Shown in pieces: positions 1 through 59,067 of a stretch of 64,000 bases of DNA. The notes under the pieces were generated by a model. It was not told where the DNA came from. It saw nothing but the letters and a program-made list of their open reading frames with translations, and made no database searches. Origin of the DNA: Schaalia vaccimaxillae DSM 15804. GTDB lineage: Bacteria > Actinomycetota > Actinomycetes > Actinomycetales > Actinomycetaceae. The stretch covers positions 1 to 64,000 of the forward strand of contig NZ_ATUX01000011.1 in the NCBI RefSeq assembly GCF_000420425.1, given 5' to 3'. The position numbers and the translations under genes were made by a program. Each line of letters starts with the position of its first letter. The first letter of the stretch is position 1.

Positions 1-72
1 GAGGTGCGTCCCTCGCGAGAAAGACGTGCGTCCCTCGACAAACTTATGGGCGTCCCTCGCAGGGAGGGAAGA
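1..72. repeat. 22-bp-period GCGTCCCTCG array, locus 1
   Basis: The 10-base core GCGTCCCTCG begins at 6, 28 and 50, so the period is exactly 22 bp. The 12-base spacers differ (one is GAGAAAGAC-like, another AAACTTATGG-like). The same core with the same 22-bp period recurs near 47.75, 52.29 and 58.17 kb. The array may extend past the left edge of the window. Its function is unknown; two helical turns per unit would suit a protein-binding array. Confidence 0.85.
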
Positions 73-29904: not shown

Positions 29905-29967
29905 GGACTGCATCAATCGCGTTTGAACCCTGCAATATCACCATCACAACTACGAAGGAGTAGACAC

Positions 29968-31221
29968 ATGTCCACCACTATTCACCGAGGCTTCAAGGGT
30001 GTTACCGCCCTCGGAGCTATCACCGCCCTCGCTCTTGGTATGAGTGCGTGCTCAGGCGGATCCACCGATCCGTCAACCTCCGCCGACGGTGGCACTGTGA
30101 CCATCCAGATGTGGGACTATCTGGGGCAGGGAGTCTCCAACACCGCGATGGAGGCTGCTGTTGCGGCATTTGAGAAGGCCAACCCCGGATACGAGGTCAA
30201 GCGCACGTCCTTCGCGTACGGTGATCTCGCTAAATCGATCGTGCAGGGTGGCGTTGGCGGTGAGGTTCCTGATCTTGCTGTTGTCGATGTCGTTGATAAC
30301 CAGAACTTCGCTGCCCTCGGATTGCTCAAAGACATGACCGATGTTGCCGGAAATGAGGCCAAACAGTTCCACCCTGGTCCGTGGACATCAACCCAGATGG
30401 ATGGTAAGACCTATGGGTTGCCTCTGAACTCGAACAACCTCGGCCTTTTCTACAATAAGACCCTCCTGGACGCAGCGGGCGTCAAGATTCCTACGACCTG
30501 GGATGAATTAGCTGCGACTGCCAAGGCTACCGCCTCCGGTGACGTATCTGGTCTAGCAATCTCCGCGGTTAAGAATGAGCAGGGAACCTTCCAGGTTCTG
30601 CCCTTCGTTTGGCAGACCGGGGGTGATCTTACCGACTACGAGGCCTCCGGTGCCGAGGCTCTGACCTACCTCAAATCGATGATTGACGATGGGGCGATGT
30701 CCTCTGCAGTCACAAATTACTCGCAAGAAGATGCTCGCACTCAGTTCACCGCCGGCAAGGTGGCAATGATGATGAACGGCCCGTGGGAGCTGCAGAACCT
30801 GTCCGATGTTGACTTTGAATGGGGTGTCGCCCCGCTGCCCAAGGGTGTCGAGGCAGCCACCGGCCTGGGTGGCGAGAACGTCGTCGTCATGGAGCAGGCC
30901 AAGCACTCCGAGGGCGCGATCAAGCTCGCCCAGTTCCTCACCAGCGCCGAGGGCGCAAAAATCTACTGCGACGAATCCGGCCAGCTATCCGCCCGCCCAG
31001 ATCTGGCTGGCAAGCTCAAGCTCTCCGCTGATCCCAATCTCAAAGTCTTTGAAGATCAACTAGCTGTCGCCCACGCGCGCGCCTACGGCAAAGAGTATGC
31101 GAAGGTGTCCGAGGCCGTTCAGCTGTCTGTCCAGGAAGCTTTAACCGGCGCGTCCACTCCCGCCGAAGCCGCAAAGAAGGCCGCCGCGACGATTGCGCCG
31201 CTGCTGGAGTCAGACAAGTGA
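29968..31221 (+). CDS. Sugar ABC transporter substrate-binding lipoprotein (CUT1)
   Basis: A 417-residue family-1 solute-binding protein. The signal peptide ends in the lipobox MSAC|SGG at about residue 27. GAAGGAG 8 bases upstream fixes the ATG at 29968. It lies 63 bp after the GH31 gene and overlaps the next permease start (GTGA). The genetic link to GH31 and its LacI regulator suggests an alpha-xylosyl oligosaccharide ligand, for example from xyloglucan. No ATPase is linked. Confidence 0.92.
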   Translation: MSTTIHRGFKGVTALGAITALALGMSACSGGSTDPSTSADGGTVTIQMWDYLGQGVSNTAMEAAVAAFEKANPGYEVKRTSFAYGDLAKSIVQGGVGGEVPDLAVVDVVDNQNFAALGLLKDMTDVAGNEAKQFHPGPWTSTQMDGKTYGLPLNSNNLGLFYNKTLLDAAGVKIPTTWDELAATAKATASGDVSGLAISAVKNEQGTFQVLPFVWQTGGDLTDYEASGAEALTYLKSMIDDGAMSSAVTNYSQEDARTQFTAGKVAMMMNGPWELQNLSDVDFEWGVAPLPKGVEAATGLGGENVVVMEQAKHSEGAIKLAQFLTSAEGAKIYCDESGQLSARPDLAGKLKLSADPNLKVFEDQLAVAHARAYGKEYAKVSEAVQLSVQEALTGASTPAEAAKKAAATIAPLLESDK

Positions 31222-44659: not shown

Positions 44660-46201
44660 ATGGCACAGCAAGCGCAACCCCGGGTCATCCTTGAGATGGA
44701 CTCGATTACGAAGACATTCCCAGGCGTCAAAGCCCTCTCAGACGTCACCTTCGACATCCGAGAGAACGAAATTCACGCAATCTGCGGTGAAAACGGTGCA
44801 GGCAAATCGACTCTGATGAAAGTCCTCTCGGGCGTTCACCCGCACGGCTCATATACCGGCAGAATCGTCCTCGACGGCAAAGAAGCCACCTACAAGAACG
44901 TCAAGGAGTCTGAAAAAGACGGCATCGTCGTCATCCAGCAGGAGCTCGCGCTGAGCCCCTACCTGTCAATCGCAGAAAACATCTTCCTCGGGAACGAACG
45001 TAAGAAGCACGGTGTCATTGACTGGCACGAGACGAATGCACAGGCCAAAGCCCTCATGGACAAGGTTGGCCTGGATGAAAATCCAAACACAATTGTCTCC
45101 AACATTGGTGTTGGCAAGCAGCAGCTCGTTGAAATTGCCAAAGCACTAGGAAAGGACGTGCGCGTCCTCATCCTGGATGAACCCACTGCGGCACTTAACG
45201 ACGATGACTCCCAGCAACTCCTTGACCTTATTGTGGGGCTGAAAGAATCAGGAATTTCCTGCGTCATTATCAGCCACAAACTCTCTGAGATTCGTCAGAT
45301 TGCCGACCGCGTCACCGTCATTCGTGATGGTCAAACTATTGTCACTCATGAGATGCACGGCGACCTTGAGATCACCGAAAATCTGCTGATCAAAGACATG
45401 GTCGGACGCTCGATGGACAATCGCTTCCCCGAGCATGAGTCCCACATCGGAGAAGAAGTCATGCGCGTCGAAAACTGGGCTGTCACCAGTCCCGTTACCG
45501 GCAGGCGAGCCTTGCATGATGTCAGCTTCAATGTTCGTTCGGGGGAAATCGTTGGTATCGCGGGTCTAATGGGTGCTGGACGGACCGAACTTGCCATGAG
45601 CCTCTTCGGAAAGTCTTGGGGCACCTACGAACATGGAGACCTCTATCTCAAGGGAAAAAAGGTCGAACTCAACTCGGTTCGCGCGGCGATTGACGCTGGC
45701 CTCGCCTACGCATCCGAAGACCGCAAACGCTACGGACTCAATCTCATCGGCCCAATCAAGCACAACATGACGGCTGCGTCGATGAAACGCATCACCAAGG
45801 GTGGTGTTATCTCGGAGATCACCGAGTACGAACTCGCCGAGGATCAGCGCAAGAAAATGCGCACCAAAGCCAAGTCCGTAGACATCCCGGTTGGAACCCT
45901 ATCGGGTGGTAACCAGCAGAAGGTTGTTCTGGCAAAGTGGTTGCTCACTGAACCTGATGTTTTGATCCTTGATGAACCGACGCGAGGCATTGACGTTGGT
46001 GCCAAATATGAGATCTATCAGCTCATTAACGAGCTAGCTGACCAAGGCAAAGCCGTCGTCGTCATCTCTTCGGAGCTCGTGGAGCTTCTTGGTCTATGTG
46101 ACCGCATTTACACACTCAGCTTCGGACACATCACAGGCGAGGTTCCCAGAGCGGAAGCCACGCAGGAAGTGCTGATGTCCTACATGATGCAAGAGAACTG
46201 A
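44660..46201 (+). CDS. gguA: Multiple-monosaccharide ABC transporter ATPase (GguA/MmsA-like)
   Basis: A 513-residue tandem CUT2 ATPase. First half: Walker A ([14 protein letters not shown]), signature [15 protein letters not shown], Walker B ([12 protein letters not shown]). Second half: [28 protein letters not shown] and [14 protein letters not shown]. The pattern and neighbours match the GguA group that partners with ChvE. Ribosome site GAAGGGG. It ends 14 bp before the permease. Confidence 0.94.
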
Positions 46202-46215
46202 AGGAGAGACCTGCA

Positions 46216-47427
46216 GTGAGTACTCAAGAAATTGCCGCAGGCGAGAAGAAGCCCGCAGGGAAATCATCGTGGATGAAGCGTATTGACTTCGGTCAATACG
46301 GCATCATGCTGGCACTGGTTGTTGTCGTGATCTTCTTCCAAGTCATGACTCAGGGACGTCTGCTTCGCCCCGATAACGTTGCCTCGCTCATTCAACAGAA
46401 TGCGTACGTGATCATTATGGCGCTGGGTATGCTAATGATTATTGTTGCGGGACACATTGACCTGTCCGTTGGCTCGCTCATCGCATTCATCGGTGGTGTT
46501 CTTGGCATCGCGATGACTCAATGGAATATGCCGTGGCCGCTCGCTGTTCTCCTGGCCTTGGCTATTGGTGGTGTAGTGGGGGCCTGGCAGGGATTCTGGG
46601 TGGCCTTCGTGGGTATTCCAGGCTTCATTGTGACGTTGGCAGGCATGCTGCTCTTCCGAGGTCTGGCAATTGTCATCGTTCCTGGGACCATCGCGTCGCT
46701 GCCCTCTGGTTTCGTTAAAATTTCTAACGGTGGCATCCTCGGGCCGCTCGGGTTTGCGGGTGTCTATGATGTTTTCACACTGGTTATCGGACTGGTTTTG
46801 GCCGCGATTTTCGTGTTCTCGCAGTTCCGTTCGCGTCGCGCCCTGATTAAGCATGGTCTAGAACCTGAGCCCATGTGGTTGGCGCTGGCCAAGTCGGCAG
46901 TGATCGCAGGATTCATCGTCTTCTTCGCTTTCATCCTGTCTGGTGCCACGATTGGTTTGCCCTTTGTCCTCGTCATTTGCGGCGTTCTGGTGTTGATCTA
47001 CCAGTTTGTCCTGACCAAGACGACCTTTGGTCGGTACATCTACGCAGTTGGTGGTAACCGAGAAGCTGCGCGTCTGTCTGGTATTTCGGTCCGCTCCGTG
47101 AATTTCTGGATGTTCGTCAACATGGGGTTGCTTTCGGCAATTGGTGCCATCGTGACAACATCACGCGCTGGGGCGGCGGTTTCGGCAGCCGGCCAGAACT
47201 ACGAGCTCGATATCATCGCGGCGTGCTTCATTGGTGGTGCAGCAGTGTGGGGTGGCGTCGGTCGAATCTCCGGTACGATCATCGGTGCTCTCTTCATGGG
47301 TGTGCTCAACATGGGTCTGTCGATTATGTCTGTCGACTCAGCTTGGCAACAGGCCATTAAGGGTCTGGTGTTGCTGCTGGCGGTCACCTTCGACCAGATC
47401 AACAAGTCTCGTGCTTCGAAAGGTTAG
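46216..47427 (+). CDS. gguB: Multiple-monosaccharide ABC transporter permease (GguB/MmsB-like)
   Basis: A 403-residue CUT2 permease with about 10 membrane segments. Its length, the long internal loop near residue 210 and the motif YAVGGNREAARLSGISVRSVN match the GguB/XylH group rather than the shorter RbsC group. It starts with GTG at 46216 after AAGGAGAG. A near-ideal terminator follows 22 bp past its stop. Confidence 0.93.
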   Translation: MSTQEIAAGEKKPAGKSSWMKRIDFGQYGIMLALVVVVIFFQVMTQGRLLRPDNVASLIQQNAYVIIMALGMLMIIVAGHIDLSVGSLIAFIGGVLGIAMTQWNMPWPLAVLLALAIGGVVGAWQGFWVAFVGIPGFIVTLAGMLLFRGLAIVIVPGTIASLPSGFVKISNGGILGPLGFAGVYDVFTLVIGLVLAAIFVFSQFRSRRALIKHGLEPEPMWLALAKSAVIAGFIVFFAFILSGATIGLPFVLVICGVLVLIYQFVLTKTTFGRYIYAVGGNREAARLSGISVRSVNFWMFVNMGLLSAIGAIVTTSRAGAAVSAAGQNYELDIIAACFIGGAAVWGGVGRISGTIIGALFMGVLNMGLSIMSVDSAWQQAIKGLVLLLAVTFDQINKSRASKG

Positions 47428-47448
47428 CCGTCGGCTTGACTGACTCCG

Positions 47449-47483
47449 AATGCCCCCATCTGGCTCAGCCAGATGGGGGCATT
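47449..47483 (+). terminator. Terminator of the chvE-gguA-gguB operon
   Basis: AATGCCCCCATCTGGC (47449-47464), loop TCA, then its perfect 16-bp complement (47468-47483), then TGTGTTG. It closes the importer operon. Confidence 0.85.
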
Positions 47484-47564
47484 TGTGTTGATAGTGGTGT
47501 GGATTCCGGTTCTCAGACATATTGCTGACTCTGAAAGAGCGGGACTCAGTGGTTTCTGGCCCTT

Positions 47565-47700
47565 ACCCGCAAAAATAGACACAGTCGTTTGATAAGGCTG
47601 AAAGCCCTATTTTTATTTGTGCAGGTCAGGCTGAAGTCGCTCTTTTTCTTGCTTGGCTTGAGGGTCGCCAAAGTCGACGACTGTGTCTATTTTTGCGGGT
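47565..47700. mobile_element. 136-bp MITE-like element, copy A
   Basis: A non-coding element whose ends are perfect inverted repeats of 24 bp (ACCCGCAAAAATAGAC... and its complement), extendable by one T/A pair outward. It has no room for a transposase. A second copy of the same 136-bp length lies at 52102-52237 with roughly 85-90% identity by eye. No clear target duplication is visible. Copies A and B stand on both sides of the large GH3 gene in the same orientation. Confidence 0.75.
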
Positions 47701-47747
47701 AAACCTGTAGAGAGCCAAGGATCGAGGGGACCCGACTCTGAACTTGG

Positions 47748-47779
47748 GCGTCCCTCGTGAGAAAGATGGGCGTCCCTCG
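47748..47779. repeat. 22-bp-period GCGTCCCTCG array, locus 2
   Basis: Cores begin at 47748 and 47770, spacing exactly 22 bp, with spacer TGAGAAAGATGG. It begins 47 bp after the end of MITE-like copy A, the same distance as at locus 3. The remaining 47780-47850 shows nothing I can call. Confidence 0.85.
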
Positions 47780-47850
47780 GGAAGAGAAGTTAGGGGAAAA
47801 TGCTTACTCGTAAAGTCGTTGACGGACATTTGAAGCGTGTTCTGGGCTTG

Positions 47851-47892
47851 CAACTAAATTAGTTGACGTTCAAAACAAAACTAATTTATGGG
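47851..47892 (+). promoter_or_regulatory. Possible promoter and operator of the wall-anchored GH3
   Basis: CAACTAAATTAGTTG (47851-47865) is a perfect inverted repeat with 7-bp arms. It overlaps a -35-like TTGACG (47863-47868); TATGGG (47887-47892) stands 18 bp downstream. The arms match the ACTAA/TTAGT sites at 2686 and 43152. Confidence 0.5.
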
Positions 47893-47979
47893 ATGGCGTA
47901 TGCATCGCTACCCTCCCCATGAGCCCGATTTCACTGTCGAAAAACGAGCTCGATTCCAATGCACAGCGACTGAAAGCGA

Positions 47980-50900
47980 ATGACGATGAAGTCCACTCGT
48001 AGTCGACGGCGAACCCGTGCAGCGGCCGTATCTGGCGCTGTACTCCTGACGTTTGCCCTGACCACACCCGCCGTACTTGCGGCGGAAACGAATACGCCAG
48101 GCGCCATCAATGCAGCCTCCGAGCTGCCCGCCTACAAGAACACAGCTCTCCCCTTCGAGGTCCGTGCAGCCGACCTCGTGTCACGTATGACGCGAGCCGA
48201 AAAGATCGAACAATTCCGCGCAGAACGCCAGCAGAACTCGACGATTGCGCCTGCAATTGATCGGCTTGGAGTTCCTGCATACAACTACTGGAACGAAGCG
48301 CTTCACGGCATCGCTCGCGCCGACGAAAGCAATAAAGGCCTCAACAACGGTGGCGAAGCAACGGAGTTCCCCACGGGTCTAGGAATCGCTGCCACGTGGA
48401 ACCCTGACCTCGTCAAAGCCATGGCGTCAGCAGCGTCAGACGAAGCACGTGCCATGCACAATTTTGAATCAGCAGGTGTCGCCGCCGCGCATAAAGGCCT
48501 GACCTACTGGTCGCCCACCATCAATATGCTCAAAGATCCCCGTTGGGGCCGAGCAGAAGAGACCTACGGTGAAGACCCCTTCCTGACCTCCGTCATCGGC
48601 GGCCAGTTCGTCGACGGTCTGCAAGGAGATCACGAAACCTACCTCAAGACCGCAGCAACCCCCAAGCACTACCTGGCTAACAGCTCGGAAACCAACCGTC
48701 ACACCGGTTCTTCAAACCTCACCGAGGCTGAACTGCGCGAGTACTACACGCCCGCCTTTGCCGACCTCGTCGGCAAGCACGGAGCTGGCTCCCTCATGAC
48801 CTCCTACAACGCCGTCAACGGAACCCCCGTGTCGGCCTCGAAGGAATACGTTGAAACGCTCGCCCGCCGCACCTTCGGCTTCAACGGCACCGTCACCTCA
48901 GACTGCGACGCCGTCCGCGACGTCTGGCAGCCTCAGAACCACAACTGGGGCCCCGACGGCACACCGCTGACCGCACCGCAGGCCGTCGCATGGACCCTCA
49001 AGACAGGCGTCGACCTGGACTGCATGGATGGTGACTACCCCAAGTACCTCGAGACCTCCTTCCAAGAAGGCAACGTCACCGAGGCCGACATGGAAGCCTC
49101 CCTCGTCCGAACCTTCACCATCCGCATGCGCACAGGTGAATTCGACGGAGCAGGTGCCACGCCATGGGACAACTACACCCTCGACTCCGAGATCTCGGCA
49201 GACGACCATCTCGCCACATCCCGCCAGATGAGCGACGAGGCCGCCGTCCTGCTGCGCAACGAGCAGATGGAAACGGGCAGCAAGCTGCTCCCCTTCGACG
49301 CCACCAAGACCGACAGCGTCGTCGTTGTAGGACCGCTTGCCACCACTGAGGTGCACGGTGACTACTCGCCCAGCGCCATCGCTGAGCGTTCGAACGCCCT
49401 CCAGGGAATCGAAAAGGCTGTTGCCGCTGCGAACCCCAACGCCAAGGTCACCTACATTCCTGGGATGAACAAGAGCGGCCTGGAGAACAAGCGCAAGCCT
49501 CAGATCGGTGCGAGTGTCGAAGGCTCGCCCGCCGCGGTGCGCTTCCTCGACGCTGCCGGTAATGAGCTCGGCCGTGTCGCCCCCGAAACAATCCTGCGCA
49601 ACGAAAGCTACTCCGGATGGCGGTCCATCCAGCCGTGGTGGCCCATCACCGATCGCCTCGTCACCCAGGGAGCCTGGGGCGGATGGTTCTCCGTGACCAC
49701 CAACGTGCCCGAAGGCACCGCCCACGTCGAGGTCGTCCAGCAGGGCGCCGACACCACCCTCGAAGAAGGCCGCTTCGATATTCGAATCGGCGCCAAGAAC
49801 GCTGAAGCCATTGGCTCCGTTGAAGCACTCGGTAGCACCGCCTCCACCGACTACACCGGTCCCACCGGCGAGCAGACCATCTTCTTCACCTACGAGAACG
49901 ACTCCTTCGTGCCTCTGCTGAGCGAAGAAGAACAGCAAACCATCGAGAATGCTGACGCTGTCGTCGCCTATGTTGGCACCATCGCGGGCAACAACTCTAC
50001 CTACCCGCTCATCGAAGGCAACCCCTCCGACTCCTCCGAGGACGAAGACCGGGATAACATCGACCTGCCTCGTGGCCAGGACAAACTCATCAACACCGTG
50101 TCGGAAATGAACCCGAACACCGTTGCATGGATCCAAGCCATTAGCCAGATCGACGTCGAATCCTTCAAGGACTCAGTGGCCGGCCTCGTGTGGACCACCT
50201 ACAACGGCATGTACCAGGGCGACACCGTTGGCCGCGTGCTCTTCGGCCAGGCCAACCCGTCAGCCAAGCTGCCGTTCACCCAGTACAGCGATATCGACCA
50301 GCTGGCCGATCCTCGCAACTACACCATGACCCCGACCGACGGGCTTCTGGGCCGCAGCTACCAGTACTTCACTGGCGACGTGACCTACCCCTTCGGCTTC
50401 GGCCTGTCCTACTCGACCTTCGAGTACTCCAACCTTGCACTGGCGTCGACCTCGGTTGATGTCAATGGTGAGCTAACCGCAACAGTTGATGTCACCAACA
50501 CCTCCGATGTTGATGGCGCTGAGGTTGTCCAGCTCTACGTGTCCTCGCCGTCGGCGGCAGACCCGTATCGCCCTGACTCCCAGCTCAAGGCCTTCAAGAA
50601 GGTCAACATTGCAGCTGGTGCCACTGAAAAGGTCGAGCTCAAGGTCAAGGCCTCCGACCTGTGGTTCTGGGATACTGACAACGCGCGCAAGACCTACGAG
50701 AATGGCACTTGGCAGATCTGGGTGGGCCCGTCCTCGGCAAAGGACACCGCCCTGGCTAGCTCCTTCGAGCTGACCGGCTCGCTGACCCCTGCTATCGGAG
50801 TTGTTGCAGTCGTTCCCGACGGCGTTGCACTCAACACCGCGGTCAAGGGCAACGCGATCCACGCGAACCTGTCTGCTACACGCAACGATGATTCCTTCTA

Positions 50901-51936
50901 CGACCTGTCTGATCCTGCGGTCAAGGTGACCTACACGTCGTCTGATCCCAAGATTGCCGTTGTTGATGCGCAGGGTACTGTCACTCCGGTTGCTGAGGGC
51001 GTCGCCCAGATCACCGCAACTGTTGCTGCTGACGGCACTGAGAAGTCCGCAACCTTCCCGGTGATCGTTCGTAACGGAGCCGTGACCGACGGTGACGTGA
51101 CAATCAACGATTTCCTCGTCGACTTTGCTGACCAGGAGATCTTGGTTGAGGACGCTCAGAAGGGTGTTCGCCTGAACGCTGAGCTGACTCCTTCGGGTAA
51201 CAAGGTGGCCTACACCTACCGTGTTGCTCTCAACGAGGAAAACAGCGCTGGGGCGACGGTGACCGCTGACGGCATTCTGACGGCGTCAAAGCCTGGAACT
51301 GTTCGTGTCACAGTGCTGGCTGACTCCGAAGGGATGTTCTACTCGCACACCGCGACCGTCAAGGTTGTGGAGAAGAAGACCGAGCCGGTTGTTCCGCCGG
51401 TAGATGACGATGACAGTGACAAGCCTGGCGATGACTCCGATGTCACATACCAGCCGGCCGTTGTCGTTGATGACGAGGTTGTGGTCCATGGTCAGAAGAT
51501 CACGATCACTGGCTCCGGTTTTGTCGCGGACAAGCAGATTGATGCGACTTTCCATTCTGATCCTGTCACGATTGGAAGCGCCCAGGCTGACGGCAAGGGA
51601 GGCGTGGTTTTCACCTTCACGATTCCTGAGAACGCCGAGCTTGGTGCTCACGAGATTCGTCTGGTTCAGCCGGAAAGTGGTTTGACTGCAAAGGTCGACC
51701 TTCAGGTGGTGCGTGCAGATGATCCAGCTGCCTCCGATGACAAGCTGGACAAGTCTGATAAGGCGGATAAGTCCGACAGCAAGGGACAGTCCGGTAAGGC
51801 TGGCAAGTCGGGCAAGGGTAAAGGAAAGGGCTTGGCAGTAACCGGTGCAAATGCTTCGGCTGTGCTGCTCGTTTCCTTCCTTCTCTCCGCTGTTGGTCTA
51901 GGTGCTGTTGCTCTGCGGCGTCGCCTACGTGACTGA
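47980..51936 (+). CDS. Large secreted, wall-anchored GH3 beta-xylosidase/beta-glucosidase
   Basis: A 1318-residue exported enzyme. Signal peptide about 1-35 (RSRRRTR, hydrophobic core, VLA|AE). GH3 N-terminal barrel about 45-370 with KHYLANSSE and nucleophile Asp308 in VTSDCDAV; GH3 C-terminal domain about 400-830 with an extra, unassigned beta-rich insert near 505-620; FnIII-like domain about 845-930; two Ig-like (Big_2-type) domains about 945-1140; a TIG-like module about 1157-1240 shared with the GH10 at 17949; a Lys/Ser/Gly-rich linker; LAVTG at 1285, a hydrophobic span and RRRLRD. No good ribosome site stands before ATG 47980 or 47986. The WNEALHGIARAD motif favours the beta-xylosidase branch. 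It is flanked by two MITE-like elements. Confidence 0.93.
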   Translation: MTMKSTRSRRRTRAAAVSGAVLLTFALTTPAVLAAETNTPGAINAASELPAYKNTALPFEVRAADLVSRMTRAEKIEQFRAERQQNSTIAPAIDRLGVPAYNYWNEALHGIARADESNKGLNNGGEATEFPTGLGIAATWNPDLVKAMASAASDEARAMHNFESAGVAAAHKGLTYWSPTINMLKDPRWGRAEETYGEDPFLTSVIGGQFVDGLQGDHETYLKTAATPKHYLANSSETNRHTGSSNLTEAELREYYTPAFADLVGKHGAGSLMTSYNAVNGTPVSASKEYVETLARRTFGFNGTVTSDCDAVRDVWQPQNHNWGPDGTPLTAPQAVAWTLKTGVDLDCMDGDYPKYLETSFQEGNVTEADMEASLVRTFTIRMRTGEFDGAGATPWDNYTLDSEISADDHLATSRQMSDEAAVLLRNEQMETGSKLLPFDATKTDSVVVVGPLATTEVHGDYSPSAIAERSNALQGIEKAVAAANPNAKVTYIPGMNKSGLENKRKPQIGASVEGSPAAVRFLDAAGNELGRVAPETILRNESYSGWRSIQPWWPITDRLVTQGAWGGWFSVTTNVPEGTAHVEVVQQGADTTLEEGRFDIRIGAKNAEAIGSVEALGSTASTDYTGPTGEQTIFFTYENDSFVPLLSEEEQQTIENADAVVAYVGTIAGNNSTYPLIEGNPSDSSEDEDRDNIDLPRGQDKLINTVSEMNPNTVAWIQAISQIDVESFKDSVAGLVWTTYNGMYQGDTVGRVLFGQANPSAKLPFTQYSDIDQLADPRNYTMTPTDGLLGRSYQYFTGDVTYPFGFGLSYSTFEYSNLALASTSVDVNGELTATVDVTNTSDVDGAEVVQLYVSSPSAADPYRPDSQLKAFKKVNIAAGATEKVELKVKASDLWFWDTDNARKTYENGTWQIWVGPSSAKDTALASSFELTGSLTPAIGVVAVVPDGVALNTAVKGNAIHANLSATRNDDSFYDLSDPAVKVTYTSSDPKIAVVDAQGTVTPVAEGVAQITATVAADGTEKSATFPVIVRNGAVTDGDVTINDFLVDFADQEILVEDAQKGVRLNAELTPSGNKVAYTYRVALNEENSAGATVTADGILTASKPGTVRVTVLADSEGMFYSHTATVKVVEKKTEPVVPPVDDDDSDKPGDDSDVTYQPAVVVDDEVVVHGQKITITGSGFVADKQIDATFHSDPVTIGSAQADGKGGVVFTFTIPENAELGAHEIRLVQPESGLTAKVDLQVVRADDPAASDDKLDKSDKADKSDSKGQSGKAGKSGKGKGKGLAVTGANASAVLLVSFLLSAVGLGAVALRRRLRD

Positions 51937-52006
51937 CCGGTGTACGCCACTCAGTCAGAGCTGATGATCCAAATAAGGTGATAGCTCTGAAATTGAGTCA
52001 CTGACA

Positions 52007-52048
52007 ATCGGGCTCTTGACCTCCGATTCCGGAGGCCAGGAGCCCGAT
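52007..52048 (+). terminator. Terminator of the wall-anchored GH3
   Basis: ATCGGGCTC...CCTCCG (52007-52025) pairs with CGGAGG...GAGCCCGAT (52030-52048), with a small internal loop, followed by CTGTTGTTGG. Confidence 0.7.
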
Positions 52049-52101
52049 CTGTTGTTGGAGAAGATCGTGGCTGCCTTAAAACGGGCAGGCTGGTCTTTAT
52101 G

Positions 52102-52237
52102 ACCCACAAAAATAGACACAGTCGTTTGACAAGGCTGAAAGCGCTATTTGTATTTATACAGGTCAGACCGAAGTTGCTTTTAATCTTGCTTGGCTTGTGA
52201 ATCGCCAAAACCAACGACTGTGTCTAATTTTGCGGGT
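52102..52237. mobile_element. 136-bp MITE-like element, copy B
   Basis: The second copy of the element at 47565-47700, equal in length and orientation. The inverted ends (ACCCACAAAAATAGAC... and complement) carry a few mismatches here, so copy A is the better preserved. It has no coding capacity. Confidence 0.75.
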
Positions 52238-52284
52238 GAACCTGTATAGAGCCGATACCCCAATGGGTGCAGGACTGAACTTGT

Positions 52285-52360
52285 GCGTCCTTCGCGGGGG
52301 TTTTGTGCGTCCTTCGGCAGACTTTTGTGCGTCCCTCGAGAGAAAGATGGGCGTCCTTCG
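52285..52360. repeat. 22-bp-period GCGTCCYTCG array, locus 3
   Basis: Cores begin at 52285, 52307, 52329 and 52351: four units at exactly 22 bp. Three read GCGTCCTTCG and one GCGTCCCTCG. The array starts 47 bp after MITE-like copy B, as at locus 2. It lies between the convergent GH3 and epimerase genes. Confidence 0.88.
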
Positions 52361-52384
52361 GGGGCAAGCAAAGGGGGCCGGGAC

Positions 52385-53356
52385 TTAGAGCAGCGACCCG
52401 ACAAGCCGATGCTTAATCTCGTACCGCTGGCCGGCCTTGAGGTCTACGGCCGTGGCCACACCAGCGTCAGACAGCGGATTCTCGCTGGCTGAAACGCCCA
52501 CGCCGAAGTCAAATGCCGAAGTCACAGGTTCAATACCCAGGCACACATTGGTGCCGCCCCAAGGCTCAAACTTGCGCCCACGGTTCGAGAACCACAGCAA
52601 CACAGAGCTCAAATACTCCCGCTCCCATTCAACGGCGACGCGGTATCCCTCGTCTTCATTATCCAAAGACACAACTCCCTGCTTCGGATTGGCCGCAAGG
52701 ACAATCTCATCCACGTCATCAGCCAAAGGCAGGCGCGTCAGATCAACCGTTCCTCCGCCGGATAGGGGAGCGGCGCTCAGGTCTGAAAACTGGGCTCCAA
52801 TTTCCAACTTGGTCGTTCCCGAATCGACGGGCAGCACGTGGTAGCTGTCAACCTCGGGCATCCTTAACTGCGCACCTCCGGTGCTTTCGGGCAGACGTAG
52901 GATCGGATGCAAGCCGAGTGGTAGGCGGGCGTCTTCGCGCATAATGATGGCATCGACAAACTCCACGGCGCCCTCGACGCAGGTGACGCGTCTCTCCACA
53001 CGAGCAACAGCTGAATCTGCATAGTCGAGGGCGAGGACGGCTTCGTTTTCACTTTGGCTGACTACCGTCCATGTGCCATTAGCGGAGTATCCGTGCGCCC
53101 ACTGACCCGGGCCTGTGTAGCCTTCACGCCACTCTTTGGGGAGATCTTCGGCACTCGCGGGGGCTGCGCCGAAGGGAACGCACAGGAAGTCCCCGCGCAG
53201 TTTGTCGAGCAAAGGTACCTCAGCAAAACCATCCCATTGAGCGGTGTAGGTGGGGGTGAAAGCGTGGTTGGTATCGGCTTCAAAAGTCGCTGTGACCATG
53301 GCTGCCTGCAGCTGGATGGCTGCACGTACCTTGCTGGTGCCGATGGTGATTTCCAT
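52385..53356 (-). CDS. Aldose 1-epimerase-like protein (GalM fold)
   Basis: A 323-residue protein resembling the aldose 1-epimerase/galactose mutarotase superfamily. HPILRLPESTGG and the WGGTNVCLGIEPVTSAFDFG region (the conserved Glu near the C-terminus of mutarotases) are visible. It would interconvert sugar anomers in the cytoplasm. It is divergent from the fucosidase importer operon, so L-fucose or xylose could be the substrate. The N-terminal half is less typical, hence moderate certainty. Confidence 0.75.
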   Translation of the reverse strand: MEITIGTSKVRAAIQLQAAMVTATFEADTNHAFTPTYTAQWDGFAEVPLLDKLRGDFLCVPFGAAPASAEDLPKEWREGYTGPGQWAHGYSANGTWTVVSQSENEAVLALDYADSAVARVERRVTCVEGAVEFVDAIIMREDARLPLGLHPILRLPESTGGAQLRMPEVDSYHVLPVDSGTTKLEIGAQFSDLSAAPLSGGGTVDLTRLPLADDVDEIVLAANPKQGVVSLDNEDEGYRVAVEWEREYLSSVLLWFSNRGRKFEPWGGTNVCLGIEPVTSAFDFGVGVSASENPLSDAGVATAVDLKAGQRYEIKHRLVGSLL

Positions 53357-53706
53357 GATGATCGCTCCTTTGTTATGTCAGGGTGAGAGGTTAGGGGAGG
53401 TTGTTTTCCTCTGAAATCTACTTGTTATCAGGTCGTAATTTTGTTGACTATGAGTGGTATTTCATTGGAAATTCAGCCTTTTTGCTCCTTCGAGAAAAGC
53501 TTGAAGCATAAAAGCGTTGTTCCATTGACATTGTCCTGATACTGTTTGCTTTGTCATATTCAAAGATGAAACGTGGCAACAATGTCAGGTGTTTTCGATT
53601 GGTCGGCACTCCGGTGTGTCGAAGCAACCGTGCCGAGCTTACACCCGTACATAGGCTCCGACCTTTTGGGTTGGTGCCCGTCCATTTCAGGAATGAGGCT
53701 GAATCA
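53357..53706. promoter_or_regulatory. Divergent intergenic region, epimerase-like / fucosidase operon
   Basis: This 350-bp AT-richer gap must hold promoters for both directions. TTGACA occurs at 53525-53530 and an extended -10-like TGATACTGT at about 53537-53545, but they are not properly spaced with each other. I see no convincing palindromic operator and no gene. Confidence 0.4.
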
Positions 53707-54957
53707 ATGCGCAATTTCAAGAAAGCGGCCATCGTCGCTACAGCGATCCTTCCAATGGTCGCCCTCGCAGCATGCTCCGGCGGATCGGGCGCTGAATCCG
53801 ACTCCGGCGAGGCATCGGCACGCACCACCCAGATGTACGCGTGGGTGTCCGCAGAATCTGACCGCCAGCAGTGGCAGGCATTCGTTGACGCCGCCAAAGA
53901 GGTCAACCCCGAATTCGAATTAACCTTCGACGGCCCGGCCTTCACCGACTACTTCACGAAGGTTAAAACCCGCATGATGGCGGATGACGCACCATGCATC
54001 TTGACGACGCAGGCGGCGCGAGCCCAAGAACTTCGGGGAATCCTCACCCCTTTGGATGATCTGATGAAGGCTAACGGTATCGAAGCCTCGACCTACAACG
54101 AAGCCATGATGACGGGTATGACTATCGACGGTAAGGTCGTTGCTTTACCGTATGATGCTGAACCGGATGTCCTTTACTACAATCGCGCGCTATTTAAGGA
54201 AGCAGGGCTGACAGAACCGGGTACCGATTACACAACCAACCAGTTCCTTTCTGACGCCAAGGCTCTGACCAAGGACGGTAAGTGGGGCCTGGCCGTCAAG
54301 CCCTCTTTCATGGATAACGCCCCCGGCGTCTTCGCCTACTCCTTCGGTGGCGCCGTGTCCGCAGACGGTAAGCCCACGATGACCGATCCTAAGGTCGTCG
54401 AGGGCGTCCAATTCGCTTTCGATCTCATCGGCAAAGAAAAGGTTGCTCAAGCCCCCAACGCAGCCGATGGTGATGGTCCTTCCCAGGGTGCCTTCACTTC
54501 GGGTACTGCCGCCATGCTTTTCGATGGTCCCTGGATGTACTCGACTTTCGAAGCAGAACTTGGTGAAAATCTTGGCGTCGCAGTCATTCCCACACCGGAT
54601 GGCAAAGCTCAGGGCGTCGTCCAGGGATCCGGATTTGGTATCGCCGAAAGTTGTCCAGACAAGGACGCGGCTTTTAAGGTCCTTATGCAGCTGGTGACAC
54701 CGGAGGTTGTCGGTAAGGTTGCTGCTACCCGTGGCACCGTTCCTTCGATTGATTCGGTCATCGACCAGTGGGCTGAGGGTAAGCCTGCGGATTCGGTGGC
54801 AGCTATTGAAGCCATGCTGGCAAACGGTACTCCGCTGGTGACCACCACTGAGTGGAACCAGATTTCGACCTCGTTCATCCAGTACAGCCCTGAAGGCTTC
54901 CGCGGAACCCGCACAGCCGAAGACATCCTCACCTCAATTGAGGGTTCGGCAGGCTGA
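53707..54957 (+). CDS. Sugar ABC transporter substrate-binding lipoprotein (CUT1, fucosidase locus)
   Basis: A 416-residue family-1 solute-binding protein with signal FKKAAIVATAILPMVALAAC|SGG. GAGG lies 8 bases before the ATG at 53707. It heads an operon with two permeases and a GH29 alpha-L-fucosidase, so a fucosylated oligosaccharide is the likely ligand (xyloglucan side-chain fragments or host glycans). No ATPase and no local regulator are linked. Confidence 0.92.
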   Translation: MRNFKKAAIVATAILPMVALAACSGGSGAESDSGEASARTTQMYAWVSAESDRQQWQAFVDAAKEVNPEFELTFDGPAFTDYFTKVKTRMMADDAPCILTTQAARAQELRGILTPLDDLMKANGIEASTYNEAMMTGMTIDGKVVALPYDAEPDVLYYNRALFKEAGLTEPGTDYTTNQFLSDAKALTKDGKWGLAVKPSFMDNAPGVFAYSFGGAVSADGKPTMTDPKVVEGVQFAFDLIGKEKVAQAPNAADGDGPSQGAFTSGTAAMLFDGPWMYSTFEAELGENLGVAVIPTPDGKAQGVVQGSGFGIAESCPDKDAAFKVLMQLVTPEVVGKVAATRGTVPSIDSVIDQWAEGKPADSVAAIEAMLANGTPLVTTTEWNQISTSFIQYSPEGFRGTRTAEDILTSIEGSAG

Positions 54958-55956: not shown

Positions 55957-56803
55957 CACCAAGCTCGCGCGTCGGTCCACGCGAAAGAAAACCTTTACGA
56001 TTGTTAGCTCTGTATGCTTGACAATCCTGGCGATCCTTTTCCTCTTCCCCTTCTTCTGGATGCTCGTTACCTCTTTGAAGCCAACATCCGAAGTCTTTTC
56101 CGCAGGTTCTTCGCTGGTGGGTTCGCGGCTGGAGTGGTCAAACTACCCATCCGCCCTGTCGTCGATTCCTTTCGCCCGTGTCATCCTGAACTCGATCATC
56201 GTTTCGGTAAGCGGGTCGCTCCTGGCAATGCTTGTGTCGCTGCTGTCCGCCTACGCTTTTGCCAGGTTACGTTTCAAGTTCCGCGATCATCTCTTCTTGC
56301 TGTTCATCGGTACCCTCGTGCTACCCCAAGAGGTTTTGGTTATTCCATTGTTCTTAGGTTTGAACAAGCTTGGTCTGACAAACTCGTATTTCTCGCTGAT
56401 CGTGCCTTTCGCATTCGGAGCTTTCGGAGCGTTCCTCATTCGGCAATTCCTCATGCAGCTGCCCTTGGAGTTCGAGGAGGCCGCCCGGATTGACGGATGC
56501 AATGACTGGCGCATCATGACCCAGATCCTGCTTCCGCTACTCAAAGCGCCGATCCTTGTGGTCGGAGTCTTCGCCTTCATCGACTACTGGTCGACATTCC
56601 TATGGCCTCTCATCGTGATCAACGATCAGTCGATGGCGACAATCCCACTGGGCCTGCAGATGTTCTCAGGTGAACGCGGCACCGACTGGGGTCCAATGAT
56701 GGCAGCCGTCGCCATGACAACTATTCCCTCATTCCTCATCGTCGTCTTCCTCCAGAAACAACTGGAGAAGGGCGTCGCCCTCGGCGCATTTGGAGGTCGC
56801 TAA
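55949..56803 (+). CDS. Sugar ABC transporter permease (MalG-like)
   Basis: A 284-residue CUT1 permease with the EAA loop EAARIDGCNDWRIMTQILLP and six predicted spans. Its ATG lies inside the end of the preceding permease gene, with AGAGG upstream. It carries the ribosome site of the fucosidase gene in its last codons. Confidence 0.93.
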   Translation: MPDTKLARRSTRKKTFTIVSSVCLTILAILFLFPFFWMLVTSLKPTSEVFSAGSSLVGSRLEWSNYPSALSSIPFARVILNSIIVSVSGSLLAMLVSLLSAYAFARLRFKFRDHLFLLFIGTLVLPQEVLVIPLFLGLNKLGLTNSYFSLIVPFAFGAFGAFLIRQFLMQLPLEFEEAARIDGCNDWRIMTQILLPLLKAPILVVGVFAFIDYWSTFLWPLIVINDQSMATIPLGLQMFSGERGTDWGPMMAAVAMTTIPSFLIVVFLQKQLEKGVALGAFGGR

Positions 56804-56804
56804 C

Positions 56805-58133
56805 ATGGAATTTACACCGAAGAACCTGACCTACTCGGCAACCGACTGGGTTGACATCAAACGTCCGACCCCGCAGTGGTACAAGGACACGCCCCTGGGA
56901 TTCTTCATTCACTGGGGTGCTTATTCTGTGCCGGCGTGGGCTGAGGACCATGGTGAGCTCGGTACAGAAGCGGATTGGGCTGCCTGGTTCACCCATAACT
57001 CCTATGCCGAGTGGTACTACAACACGATCCGCATCGAAGGGTCGCCTGCCCAGCGACGCCACCGAGATATTTACGGGTCCCTGGACTACGACTCCTTCTT
57101 GGATATGTGGGATGCGTCGGAGTGGAATCCTGATGACTGGACGAACCTTTTTAAGAATGCGGGTGCCGATTATGCGGTGCTGACAACCAAGCACCACGAC
57201 GGCATCGCTTTGTGGGATGCCCCAGAGACCGGCAATCGCAATACCGTTCGGCGGGGGCCACGGCGCAATATCGTCGAAGAGTTCTGCGATTCGACGAGGG
57301 CGGCTGGCCTTCATGTCGGCTTGTACTATTCGGGTGGCCTGGACTGGCACTACCGTCCTTTCCCGCCCATCATGGCTGATGAGGAGTGCAACGATCTGTA
57401 CCGTCCCAAGGATGCGGAGTACGCGCGTTACGTTTTTGTCCACTCGAAGGACCTGATTGACCGCTACCGGCCCGATGTGTATTGGAATGACATTAACTGG
57501 CCGGATGAGGGTAAGAACTTCGGTGAGTTCGGCTTGGGTCGACTGATGGATCACTTCTATCAGGTGTGTCCCGAGGGGGTAACGAATGACCGCTACGGCG
57601 GTGTCCATTCAGACTTCCTGACCAGTGAGTACCAACATTTTGGTGCAGCCGAGGACGCTGCCATGTGGGAGAACTGCCGCGGAGTCGGTTTGTCCTTTGG
57701 GTACAACCGCAACGAGGGGCCGGAGCAGTATTTGTCGGGTCCCGATGCGGTGCGCCACCTGATCAATGTGGTGACTAAGGGTGGGCGCCTACTGCTTGAT
57801 GTGGGCCCCAAAGCTGATGGCTCTCTACCCACTGAGCAGTTGGCGGCTTTGGCTGGGTTGGCTGAGTTTATGGGCCCCCATAAGCCTGAGTTGGTGGCGG
57901 GGCAGGTCATTGAGCGTGAGGTGTCGTCCCCAGGTTGGGCCAGGGCGATTGCTCATGATGATCATGTTGCTGTGTTTGTCGATGAGACATCGAAGACCGT
58001 AGCCAACCTGCCTGAAGGGTTTGATTGGTCGCGGGTGTCGATCGCAAAGGGCAGCGTGTCTTTCGGTGATGGTGAGCTGTCGGTAGAGGTGCCCGAGGGC
58101 GTTCCCACTGTGGTGACGGCGCCAAGGAACTGA
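56805..58133 (+). CDS. GH29 alpha-L-fucosidase
   Basis: A 442-residue family 29 glycoside hydrolase. WYKDTPLGFFIHWGAYSVP begins the barrel, AVLTTKHHDGIALW carries the conserved His pair, and the nucleophile Asp229 is in VYWNDINWP. A C-terminal beta-sandwich of about 90 residues follows. No signal peptide, so it works in the cytoplasm on imported fucosides. GGAGG 8 bases upstream selects the ATG at 56805. It starts one base after the permease stop, which ties it to that importer. Confidence 0.93.
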   Translation: MEFTPKNLTYSATDWVDIKRPTPQWYKDTPLGFFIHWGAYSVPAWAEDHGELGTEADWAAWFTHNSYAEWYYNTIRIEGSPAQRRHRDIYGSLDYDSFLDMWDASEWNPDDWTNLFKNAGADYAVLTTKHHDGIALWDAPETGNRNTVRRGPRRNIVEEFCDSTRAAGLHVGLYYSGGLDWHYRPFPPIMADEECNDLYRPKDAEYARYVFVHSKDLIDRYRPDVYWNDINWPDEGKNFGEFGLGRLMDHFYQVCPEGVTNDRYGGVHSDFLTSEYQHFGAAEDAAMWENCRGVGLSFGYNRNEGPEQYLSGPDAVRHLINVVTKGGRLLLDVGPKADGSLPTEQLAALAGLAEFMGPHKPELVAGQVIEREVSSPGWARAIAHDDHVAVFVDETSKTVANLPEGFDWSRVSIAKGSVSFGDGELSVEVPEGVPTVVTAPRN

Positions 58134-58167: not shown

Positions 58168-58257
58168 CGAGGGACGCCCAAAACTGCGCCGAGGGACGCA
58201 CAGAGATAGCCACTGGCAATCTTGTGCGTCCCTCGTGAAACTTTTGGGCGTCCCTCG
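58168..58257. repeat. 22-bp-period array, locus 4, arranged as a large inverted repeat
   Basis: Two reverse cores (58168, 58190) and two forward cores (58226, 58248), each pair spaced 22 bp. The two 34-bp arms (58168-58201 and 58224-58257) are inverted copies matching at most positions, separated by 22 bp. Placed between the convergent fucosidase and GntR genes, the structure could fold as a long hairpin and serve both as terminator. Confidence 0.85.
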
Positions 58258-58293: not shown

Positions 58294-59067
58294 TTAGTTG
58301 GTGGCATTCCCGTCGGTCAAGGTCAACCTGAAAGAGTACAGTTCAGCGTTGTAAATGTGCGTGCCATATTCGATGACGGTGCCCTCTGAATCGTATGCAG
58401 TACGCGTCATTGTCAGGACTGGATCTCCAACTCGCATAGCCATTGGCTCTGCTTCGCTGGGTCGTAGAATCCGCGCGCCAATCTCCTGGTGAGCAGAAAC
58501 CGGTCGAATTCCTTTCTCCGCAAGACAGGCATACAGGCCTTTCGAATTGAGGTCAGTTAGGCGCGGTGCATGTGCGGCAGCTAGAACGTTGGTCATCAAA
58601 GCCAATGGTTGGTCGTCAACCAGACGTCGCCGCACAATGTGGATCACTTCGGTTCCAGGGGCGCAGCTCAAGTGTGAGGCAGCTTCTTCATCAGCAAGCT
58701 TGACGGAGTAAGAGACCACCTCAGTTGTCGGCGTAAAACCAGCTTTAAGTAGGTCTTCGTTGAGGGATGTTAAGGACAGCGGGCGGCGAACATGGGTGGG
58801 GGTTACACGTGTTCCAGCTCCCCGACGTCGGGTGAGCAGCCCGCGTGATACAAGGTCTTGAAGAGCTCGCCGTGCGGTGGGCCGAGATACCTCAAGGCGA
58901 TTCGCCATGGAAACTTCGTCTTCGATTAATTGTCCGGGCAACAAAGCACCAGTTGTAATCATCTGCCCGAGCGGTTCGGCAATCTGATTGTAAAGAGGAA
59001 CTGTGCTTTCGCGGTCCAGGCTGATGTTCGGAGCAAAGGGGACTTCGAGATTTGATGGGGTGGGCAT
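58294..59067 (-). CDS. iolR: GntR/HutC-family regulator of inositol catabolism
   Basis: A 257-residue GntR-type regulator. The N-terminal winged HTH (MANRLEVSRPTARRALQDLV) is followed by a UTRA ligand-binding domain of the HutC subfamily. It is divergent from iolC, with overlapping promoters and a TTTGT/ACAAA dyad between them, so it is the probable repressor of the iol operon and of itself. The name iolR is by position, not by orthology to the Bacillus DeoR-type IolR. Confidence 0.85.
   Translation of the reverse strand: MPTPSNLEVPFAPNISLDRESTVPLYNQIAEPLGQMITTGALLPGQLIEDEVSMANRLEVSRPTARRALQDLVSRGLLTRRRGAGTRVTPTHVRRPLSLTSLNEDLLKAGFTPTTEVVSYSVKLADEEAASHLSCAPGTEVIHIVRRRLVDDQPLALMTNVLAAAHAPRLTDLNSKGLYACLAEKGIRPVSAHQEIGARILRPSEAEPMAMRVGDPVLTMTRTAYDSEGTVIEYGTHIYNAELYSFRLTLTDGNATN

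What the first reader, a model, noticed from the sequence alone, without database searches (positions are those of the whole stretch)
47565..52360. Duplicated MITE-plus-array modules flank the wall-anchored GH3 gene
Seen: two 136-bp elements with about 24-bp inverted ends (47565-47700 and 52102-52237), same orientation, each followed after exactly 47 bp by a 22-bp-period array. The linkers share ACCTGTA(G/T)AGAGCC and CTGAACTTG. The pair encloses one gene, a 1318-residue surface GH3. Inference: the MITE, linker and array are one composite unit of about 220-260 bp, and the direct repeats could recombine to delete or mobilise the GH3 gene.
Basis: partly seen in the sequence, partly recalled or inferred. 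Interest (0 to 1): 0.72.

Follow-up and report, generated by a model that had tools for sequence, protein, structure and literature searches.

The report
Paired DNA-loop sites across a genome
The two "mini-transposons" beside a sugar-enzyme gene belong to a family of 29 short elements in this genome that look like paired protein-docking sites set whole DNA-helix turns apart, and several related species carry the same layout built from a different docking sequence.

Summary
The reading as a MITE-plus-array module is only partly right. The genome holds 29 such elements (26 without an array unit within 250 bp) and 144 array-unit pairs. Ends are conserved (84% pairwise in the 126-bp class), inner arms are at chance (26%), and the middle is conserved again. 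Lengths (103/114/125/136/148) step by about 11 bp (p<=2e-4). No consistent target-site duplication and no longer element with these ends was found. 34 congeners lack both sequences, but of seven sampled, four (G009, G014, G017, G032) clearly carry the same layout with other ends: in G017 facing arrays with an inner gap of exactly 99 in 16 of 17, in G009 60-61 or 82-83, around a shared CAGGTCA core. Best reading: helically phased nucleoprotein loop sites, working like the GalR-HU gal loop or IHF-centred BIME-1, with a species-specific end-binding protein. The window pair is one duplicated copy. GH3 deletion or mobilisation could not be tested. The binding protein and the biological output are unknown; a transposase origin remains a serious rival.

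The parts
47565..47700 (+). Element 1 (136 bp): inverted ends 47565-47588 and 47677-47700, central core GCAGGTCA at 47621-47628
52102..52237 (+). Element 2 (136 bp): inverted ends 52102-52125 and 52214-52237, core ACAGGTCA (1 mismatch) at 52158-52165
47701..47747 (+). 47-bp linker 1, alike at both ends to linker 2
52238..52284 (+). 47-bp linker 2
47748..47779 (+). 22-bp-period array, 2 units of GCGTCCYTCG
52285..52360 (+). 22-bp-period array, 4 units; ends 24 nt from the stop codon of the convergent gene 52385-53356(-)
47980..51936 (+). GH3 family surface protein gene enclosed by the two modules (1318 aa; GH3, GH3_C, Fn3-like, Big_2)
47449..47483 (+). GC-rich hairpin (17-bp arms, 1-nt loop) after the permease gene, upstream of element 1; terminator-like by eye
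   Evidence: not called by the terminator scan
52007..52048 (+). GC-rich hairpin (19-bp arms, 89% paired) after the GH3 gene, upstream of element 2; terminator-like by eye
   Evidence: not called by the terminator scan
6..59 (+). Stand-alone array, 3 units, no element beside it within the window
58168..58199 (-). Array, 2 units, 34 nt after the stop of ORF 56790-58133(+); left half of a facing pair
58226..58257 (+). Array, 2 units, 36 nt after the stop of ORF 58294-59067(-); right half of the facing pair

Best explanation
Each element is a nucleoprotein loop site. SHOWN: two inverted, strongly conserved ends, a conserved middle (a GCAGGTCA core or a palindrome-like sequence), unconstrained arms whose length moves in steps of about one helical turn, and the same layout with different ends in the congeners G009, G014, G017 and G032. 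INFERRED: a species-specific DNA-binding protein occupies both ends on one face of the helix and bridges them, closing a loop of about 100-150 bp; the core or palindrome marks the apex, where a conserved protein bends the DNA. Neighbouring arrays are extra phased sites for such a protein (in G017 and G009 the arrays are the ends; in the window genome the 22-bp array motif is a second, separate family). The loop would act as a barrier or domain marker between transcription units. The elements spread by copying in the past and are now held by selection on sites and spacing. The two window modules are one such copy duplicated together with an adjacent array, and the GH3 gene between them is incidental.
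For: 29 elements in 2.34 Mb. In the 13 elements of 126 bp, mean pairwise identity is 84% in the ends, 51% in the centre, 26% in both arms. Lengths 103, 114-115, 123-126, 135-137, 148: best period 11.0-11.1 bp, 0 of 5000 null sets reach it on distinct values, p=0.0002 for the 9 elements outside the main class. Core with at most 1 mismatch at 55-56 or 65-67 bp from one end in 12 of 29 elements, at most 2 mismatches in 14. G017: 66 units (reversed control 0), unit period 30-31, innermost facing gap exactly 99 in 16 of 17 elements and 130, one period more, in the other; in the 13 checked for it the core (at most 1 mismatch, either orientation) is always at the same offset. G009: 70 units (control 1), 15 of 15 multi-unit elements face inwards, unit spacing 32-33 (36 of 51) or 43-44 (13 of 51), inner gap 60-61 (8) or 82-83 (7); CAGGTCA with at most 1 mismatch in 7 of 7 of the latter (6 exact), exact in 0 of 8 of the former. 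Around the core pattern in seven congeners 34 of 68 boxes are flanked by a 14-bp inverted repeat against 9 of 318 random centres. Precedent: gal repression is optimal at operator distances 103, 113, 123, 133 bp with HU at the loop apex (PMC4693257, passages seen).
Against: No end-binding or core-binding protein was identified and there are no binding data. About half of the G000 elements have no clear core. The two ends of an element differ from each other more than random pairs do, with 23 of 29 pairing one end of each of two types (14.2 expected, p=0.0008), which suits a transposon's distinct left and right ends. G017 has four near-identical dispersed copies, and arrays or elements lie inside ORFs, both more natural for mobile DNA. 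Flanking gene arrangements are mixed, so no single regulatory position stands out (rough gene calls). Two of the eight core-less G009 gaps have a 1-mismatch match to the 7-base core.
Confidence: 0.52

Rival explanations
1. They are non-autonomous mobile elements: the ends are transposase-binding sites of a species-specific transposon, the core a host-factor site used to fold a very short transpososome (so phasing follows from synapsis), and the unrelated interiors come from age or abortive gap repair, as in eukaryotic Mutator-like families that share ends only (recalled).
For: Near-identical dispersed copies in G017; 86% window pair; left and right ends of two types; species-limited ends; presence inside ORFs.
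Against: No target duplication of 5-10 bp in 29 elements, one 4-bp match; no longer element with these ends; arms at chance identity while ends stay at 84%; conserved bases continue 1, 2 and 5 bp outside the ends.
Confidence: 0.3
2. REPIN/BIME-like elements spread by a RAYT (Y1 transposase) through single-stranded hairpins.
For: Inverted doublets, species-specific, sometimes tandem; BIME-1 has a central IHF-binding region (PMC2817692 passage).
Against: Of four units folded as single strands, the G000 end and the G017 unit form no hairpin and the other two only weak ones; no GTAG tag by eye; no matched pairing between the two ends: within-element mismatches 4.03 exceed between-element 3.46.
Confidence: 0.06
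3. The elements and arrays are terminators or structured 3' UTR RNAs.
For: 20 of 46 arrays with a same-strand upstream gene lie 21-39 nt after its stop codon (rough gene calls). The terminator scan has one match inside the 52285 array (52280-52298) and one just upstream of element 2 (52071-52088), but 3 in all against 5.7 expected by chance.
Against: No Rfam match at the gathering score in window 45000-54000; permease and GH3 genes have their own hairpins; the ends do not covary as a stem; facing arrays are often unequal in unit number.
Confidence: 0.05
4. One reading: MITE + linker + array is one composite mobile module whose direct repeats delete or mobilise the GH3 gene.
For: Two copies at the same 47-bp spacing flank one gene; GH3 position differs between congeners.
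Against: 26 of 29 elements have no array unit within 250 bp, and of 93 fetched arrays only three lie that close to an element; no site with one module left behind was seen (no sister strain available).
Confidence: 0.05

Closest known systems
GalR-HU gal repressosome (E. coli)
   Same: Two operators and a central HU site at the loop apex; the loop works at whole-turn distances 103/113/123/133 bp (PMC4693257 passages), close to the 103/114/125/136/148 seen here; GalR can also bridge distant sites (PMC4899725, start of abstract in listing).
   Different: One operon in the gal case; here 29 dispersed elements with no single gene arrangement; protein unknown; ends differ between species.
BIME-1 / RIB elements (two inverted REPs around an IHF-binding region, E. 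coli)
   Same: Inverted repeats around a central host-factor region (PMC2817692 passage); at 3' ends of transcription units (only from the title of Boccard and Prentki 1993 in reference lists).
   Different: REP units are palindromic and tagged; the end here forms no hairpin. The protein at the core is not known.
REPINs
   Same: Inverted doublets whose spacer is less conserved than the units (PMC3116915 passages); sometimes in clusters.
   Different: In REPINs spacer length and hairpin capacity matter and compensatory changes are common; here no pairing between the ends, longer spacers, helical steps, arrays and a conserved core.
MITEs
   Same: Short, inverted ends, no gene.
   Different: No consistent target duplication, no autonomous partner found, unrelated interiors with a conserved middle and quantised length.
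TAACTGA intergenic direct-repeat sets of Beggiatoaceae
   Same: 169 sets of 2-6 short direct repeats in one genome (PMC4679880 abstract and outline).
   Different: Heptamers mostly just upstream of start codons and found in other phyla; here 22-bp units, often after stop codons, absent from 34 congeners.

Membership tests
MITE | Terminal inverted repeats | tested here: met
   29 elements
MITE | Target-site duplication | tested here: not met
   Exact flank repeats: k=2 3 of 29 (1.4 expected), k=3 0, k=4 1, k=5-10 0; longer ones not tested
MITE | Related interior among copies | tested here: not met
   Arms 26% identity in the 126-bp class; exceptions are the window pair and one half-shared pair
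MITE | Autonomous element with the same ends | tested here: not met
   53 of 54 half-sites pair within 103-148 bp; multi-copy elements lost at contig ends cannot be excluded
REPIN / BIME-1 | Unit is a palindrome forming a hairpin, GTAG-type tag | tested here: not met
   MFE 0 for the G000 end and the G017 unit, -1.1 (G009 unit) and -2.9 kcal/mol (G000 array unit), none beyond shuffles at z below -1.2
REPIN / BIME-1 | RAYT gene in the genome | not tested
REPIN / BIME-1 | Two inverted units around a central protein site | tested here: inconclusive
   Layout present and core conserved; protein binding not testable
DNA-loop operator pair (gal type) | Two like sites at whole-turn spacing | tested here: met
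DNA-loop operator pair (gal type) | Known bridging protein and regulated promoter | not testable with these tools

The most novel reading that the evidence does not exclude
The loop elements are old, vertically kept chromosomal loci whose recognition sequence has been rewritten in concert at dozens of sites in each species, following a fast-changing DNA-binding protein, while core, geometry and partly the genomic position stay. Supporting: the interval beside one cold-shock-like gene (69 aa, named by eye) holds an element in G000, G009 and G032, each with different ends; overall 5 of 6 comparable intervals with a congener element also hold a G000 element or array, against 7 of 29 intervals without (p=0.012; G000 stretches were chosen around such features, so partly biased).
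Probability: 0.2. Interest if true: 0.88.

Novelty: new variant of a known kind. Interest (0 to 1): 0.66.

Why it matters
If right, helical phasing of protein sites, known from single operators such as gal, is written tens of times into one genome and can be read from sequence alone; the species-to-species swap of the end sequence around a constant core gives a natural system for asking how a DNA-binding protein and dozens of its sites change together. It also warns that short inverted-end repeats are easily misfiled as MITEs.

Tried and rejected
Rejected: (1) a full-length IS with the same ends in this genome. (2) RNA structure: no Rfam match in window 45000-54000, no end-to-end covariation. 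(3) Origin-proximal clustering as a chromosome-organising signal: by hand, G017 looked origin-biased against dnaA, but G009 did not, so I dropped it. (4) Viral source: 0 viral contigs with the end pattern, 0 with the array pattern, 8 core-like hits without inverted ends by eye. (5) Arrays as conserved sites: in the C5:19-31 kb region G000 has several arrays, while the aligned G009 and G017 intervals hold none of their own elements, a result against position sharing. (6) The core pattern (167 hits in 35 genomes against 12 reversed) overstates the case, because many hits, for example most of the 12 in G028, look coding (by eye); one search is the fairer test, and there G003 (0 of 5) and G022 (0 of 2) gave nothing. 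(7) Dropped or changed rows: one facing pair of 30 bp in L297 (a 4-mismatch unit) in the G009 gap list; the L299 gap is 60 with 4-mismatch units and 93 without; overlapping second pairings of C10:130177 and C13:497, and two long pairings of 279 and 368 bp. The length list was typed by hand (27 values: C13:497 left out, window pair entered once); the G009 spacing list was also typed by hand and slightly wrong, so I use the recount.
Full report
OBSERVATION. The modules are 86% identical over 152 nt; the linkers keep the same length and both ends. The enclosed ORF is a GH3 protein, closest to a xylosidase model of NCBIfam but below its cut-off, behind a ChvE/GguAB-type sugar transporter (ChvE and GguB above their cut-offs, GguA just below).

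THE ARRAYS ARE A SEPARATE FAMILY. Two units at 22 bp occur 144 times in the genome, 0 times reversed, and exactly in 0 of 34 congeners. In the 490 kb I fetched there are 93 arrays of 2-5 units. With rough gene calls, 20 of the 46 arrays that have a same-strand upstream gene begin 21-39 nt after its stop, reading CGARGGACGC in the sense direction; 8 of 93 lie inside gene calls. One of these lies between the second ABC domain and the CbiQ domain of an 864-aa ECF-type transporter ORF; the corresponding linkers of 16 aligned congener loci show no array by eye.

THE 136-BP ELEMENTS ARE A FAMILY OF 29. 54 half-sites match the end within 3 mismatches, 0 reversed; no match in 34 congeners at 2 mismatches; the GTDB scan gave one half-site in an unrelated alphaproteobacterial MAG, about what I estimate for chance, own records being left out. 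They pair as 29 elements of 103-148 bp, two of them with one poorly matching end, plus one orphan half-site.

ANATOMY. In the 13 elements of 126 bp the ends are 84% identical pairwise, the centre 51%, the arms 26%, which is chance. The centre is either GCAGGTCA (12 of 29 with at most 1 mismatch at 55-56 or 65-67 bp from one end, 14 with at most 2) or, in the 126-bp class, a palindrome-like sequence (consensus). Lengths fall at 103, 114-115, 123-126, 135-137, 148; the best period is 11.0-11.1 bp. The conserved footprint runs on outside the ends (+1 G 28, +2 A 30, +5 C 37 of 58). Ends come in two types (A or T at position 11) and 23 of 29 elements have one of each. Two neighbouring inverted elements (C12:22272 and 23443) share one arm and the core, then diverge (by eye), as if arms had been exchanged next to the core. 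No consistent target duplication.

CONGENERS. At the element beside a cold-shock-like gene, G009 has in the same place an element with other ends but the same core. 34 of 68 boxes are flanked by a 14-bp inverted repeat against 9 of 318 random centres; by genome G014 10 of 10, G009 4 of 5, G017 7 of 10, G032 9 of 24, G028 4 of 12, G003 0 of 5, G022 0 of 2; the controls were only from G009 (7 of 96), G017 (0 of 136) and G032 (2 of 86). In G017 (one contig) the ends are arrays with a 30-31-bp period facing each other; the inner gap is exactly 99 in 16 of 17 elements and 130 in the other, and in the 13 checked for it the core lies at one fixed offset, in either orientation. In G009 all 15 multi-unit elements face inwards (five single units apart), unit spacing 32-33 or 43-44 in 49 of 51, inner gap 60-61 in 8 and 82-83 in 7; CAGGTCA is exact in 6 of the 7 and in none of the 8. 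G014 and G032 have tandem forms with box-to-box distances of 125/136 and 124/146 bp, one further G032 pair being 197 apart across a run of N. So spacing moves by about whole turns within and between species.

MECHANISM. Shown: sites, spacing, orientation, core, variable arms. Inferred: one protein on the ends, another at the centre, a loop. The gal operon is the best studied case with similar numbers: repression at 103, 113, 123 and 133 bp, lost at half-turns, HU at the apex (PMC4693257, passages). BIME-1 has the same order of parts with IHF in the middle (PMC2817692, passage; Boccard and Prentki 1993 seen only as a reference title). The permease and GH3 genes have their own hairpins, so the modules are not needed as terminators, although those hairpins lack the T tract that the scan asks for. 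What the loop does is open; a barrier between transcription units is my guess.

RIVAL. A transposase could use the same phased sites. In favour: dispersed near-identical copies in G017, two end types, elements inside ORFs (two in the 1828-aa DEAH-helicase/DUF3418 ORF, C12:27451-32937). Against: no consistent target duplication, no carrier element, arms at chance. I did not test for transposase genes.

POSITION SHARING. Comparing congener and G000 intergenic intervals, 5 of 6 intervals with a congener element hold a G000 element or array, against 7 of 29 without (Fisher p=0.012); the G000 stretches were picked around such features, so this is suggestive only, and one region counts against it (C5:19-31 kb, arrays in G000 only).

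GH3. The only long match among those listed is in G011 (73%), divergent from the transporter operon; in G025 permease and the next gene are adjacent without GH3, that gene being on the other strand than in the window. This shows the gene's position varies, not that the repeats move it.

LITERATURE. Searches for Actinomyces with miniature inverted-repeat (1 paper, listing only), for Actinomycetaceae with intergenic and tandem repeats (0 papers), and for intergenic repeats, Actinobacteria, inverted repeats, species-specific, helical (2 papers) showed no description of these elements in the open-access library; subscription papers were not seen. The organism's name is unknown to me, so a search by name was not possible; the family named in these searches is a guess.

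CHECK.

Noticed in passing
G000 C12:28458-28560 and 29836-29971 (locus L124): Two elements lie inside an intact 1828-aa ORF of a DEAH helicase with DUF3418 (HrpA-like, name recalled).
   Followed up: partly
G000 C5:24479-24554 (locus L062): A 4-unit array sits in the linker between the second ABC domain and the CbiQ domain of an 864-aa ORF; the linker is hypervariable in congeners.
   Followed up: partly
L236 (G009) and L237 (G003): A different repeat, CCTATGGGGCTCAAAATGAGCCCCATAG-like, beside GCAGGTCA boxes within or after a coding region, shared by two species.
   Followed up: no
L195 (G032): A further repeat (GTCGCCCTTTGCCCGTCTGGTG) on both sides of a loop element.
   Followed up: no
L223 and L234 (G009): Loop elements close to tRNA genes (Lys-like and Glu-like, named by eye; no tRNA scan run).
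   Followed up: no
L141 (G003), next to the cold-shock-like gene: Two tandem 24-bp copies of GAGTCGCAATCGYCGCTCYGAA-like sequence at the position where G000 and G009 have loop elements.
   Followed up: no
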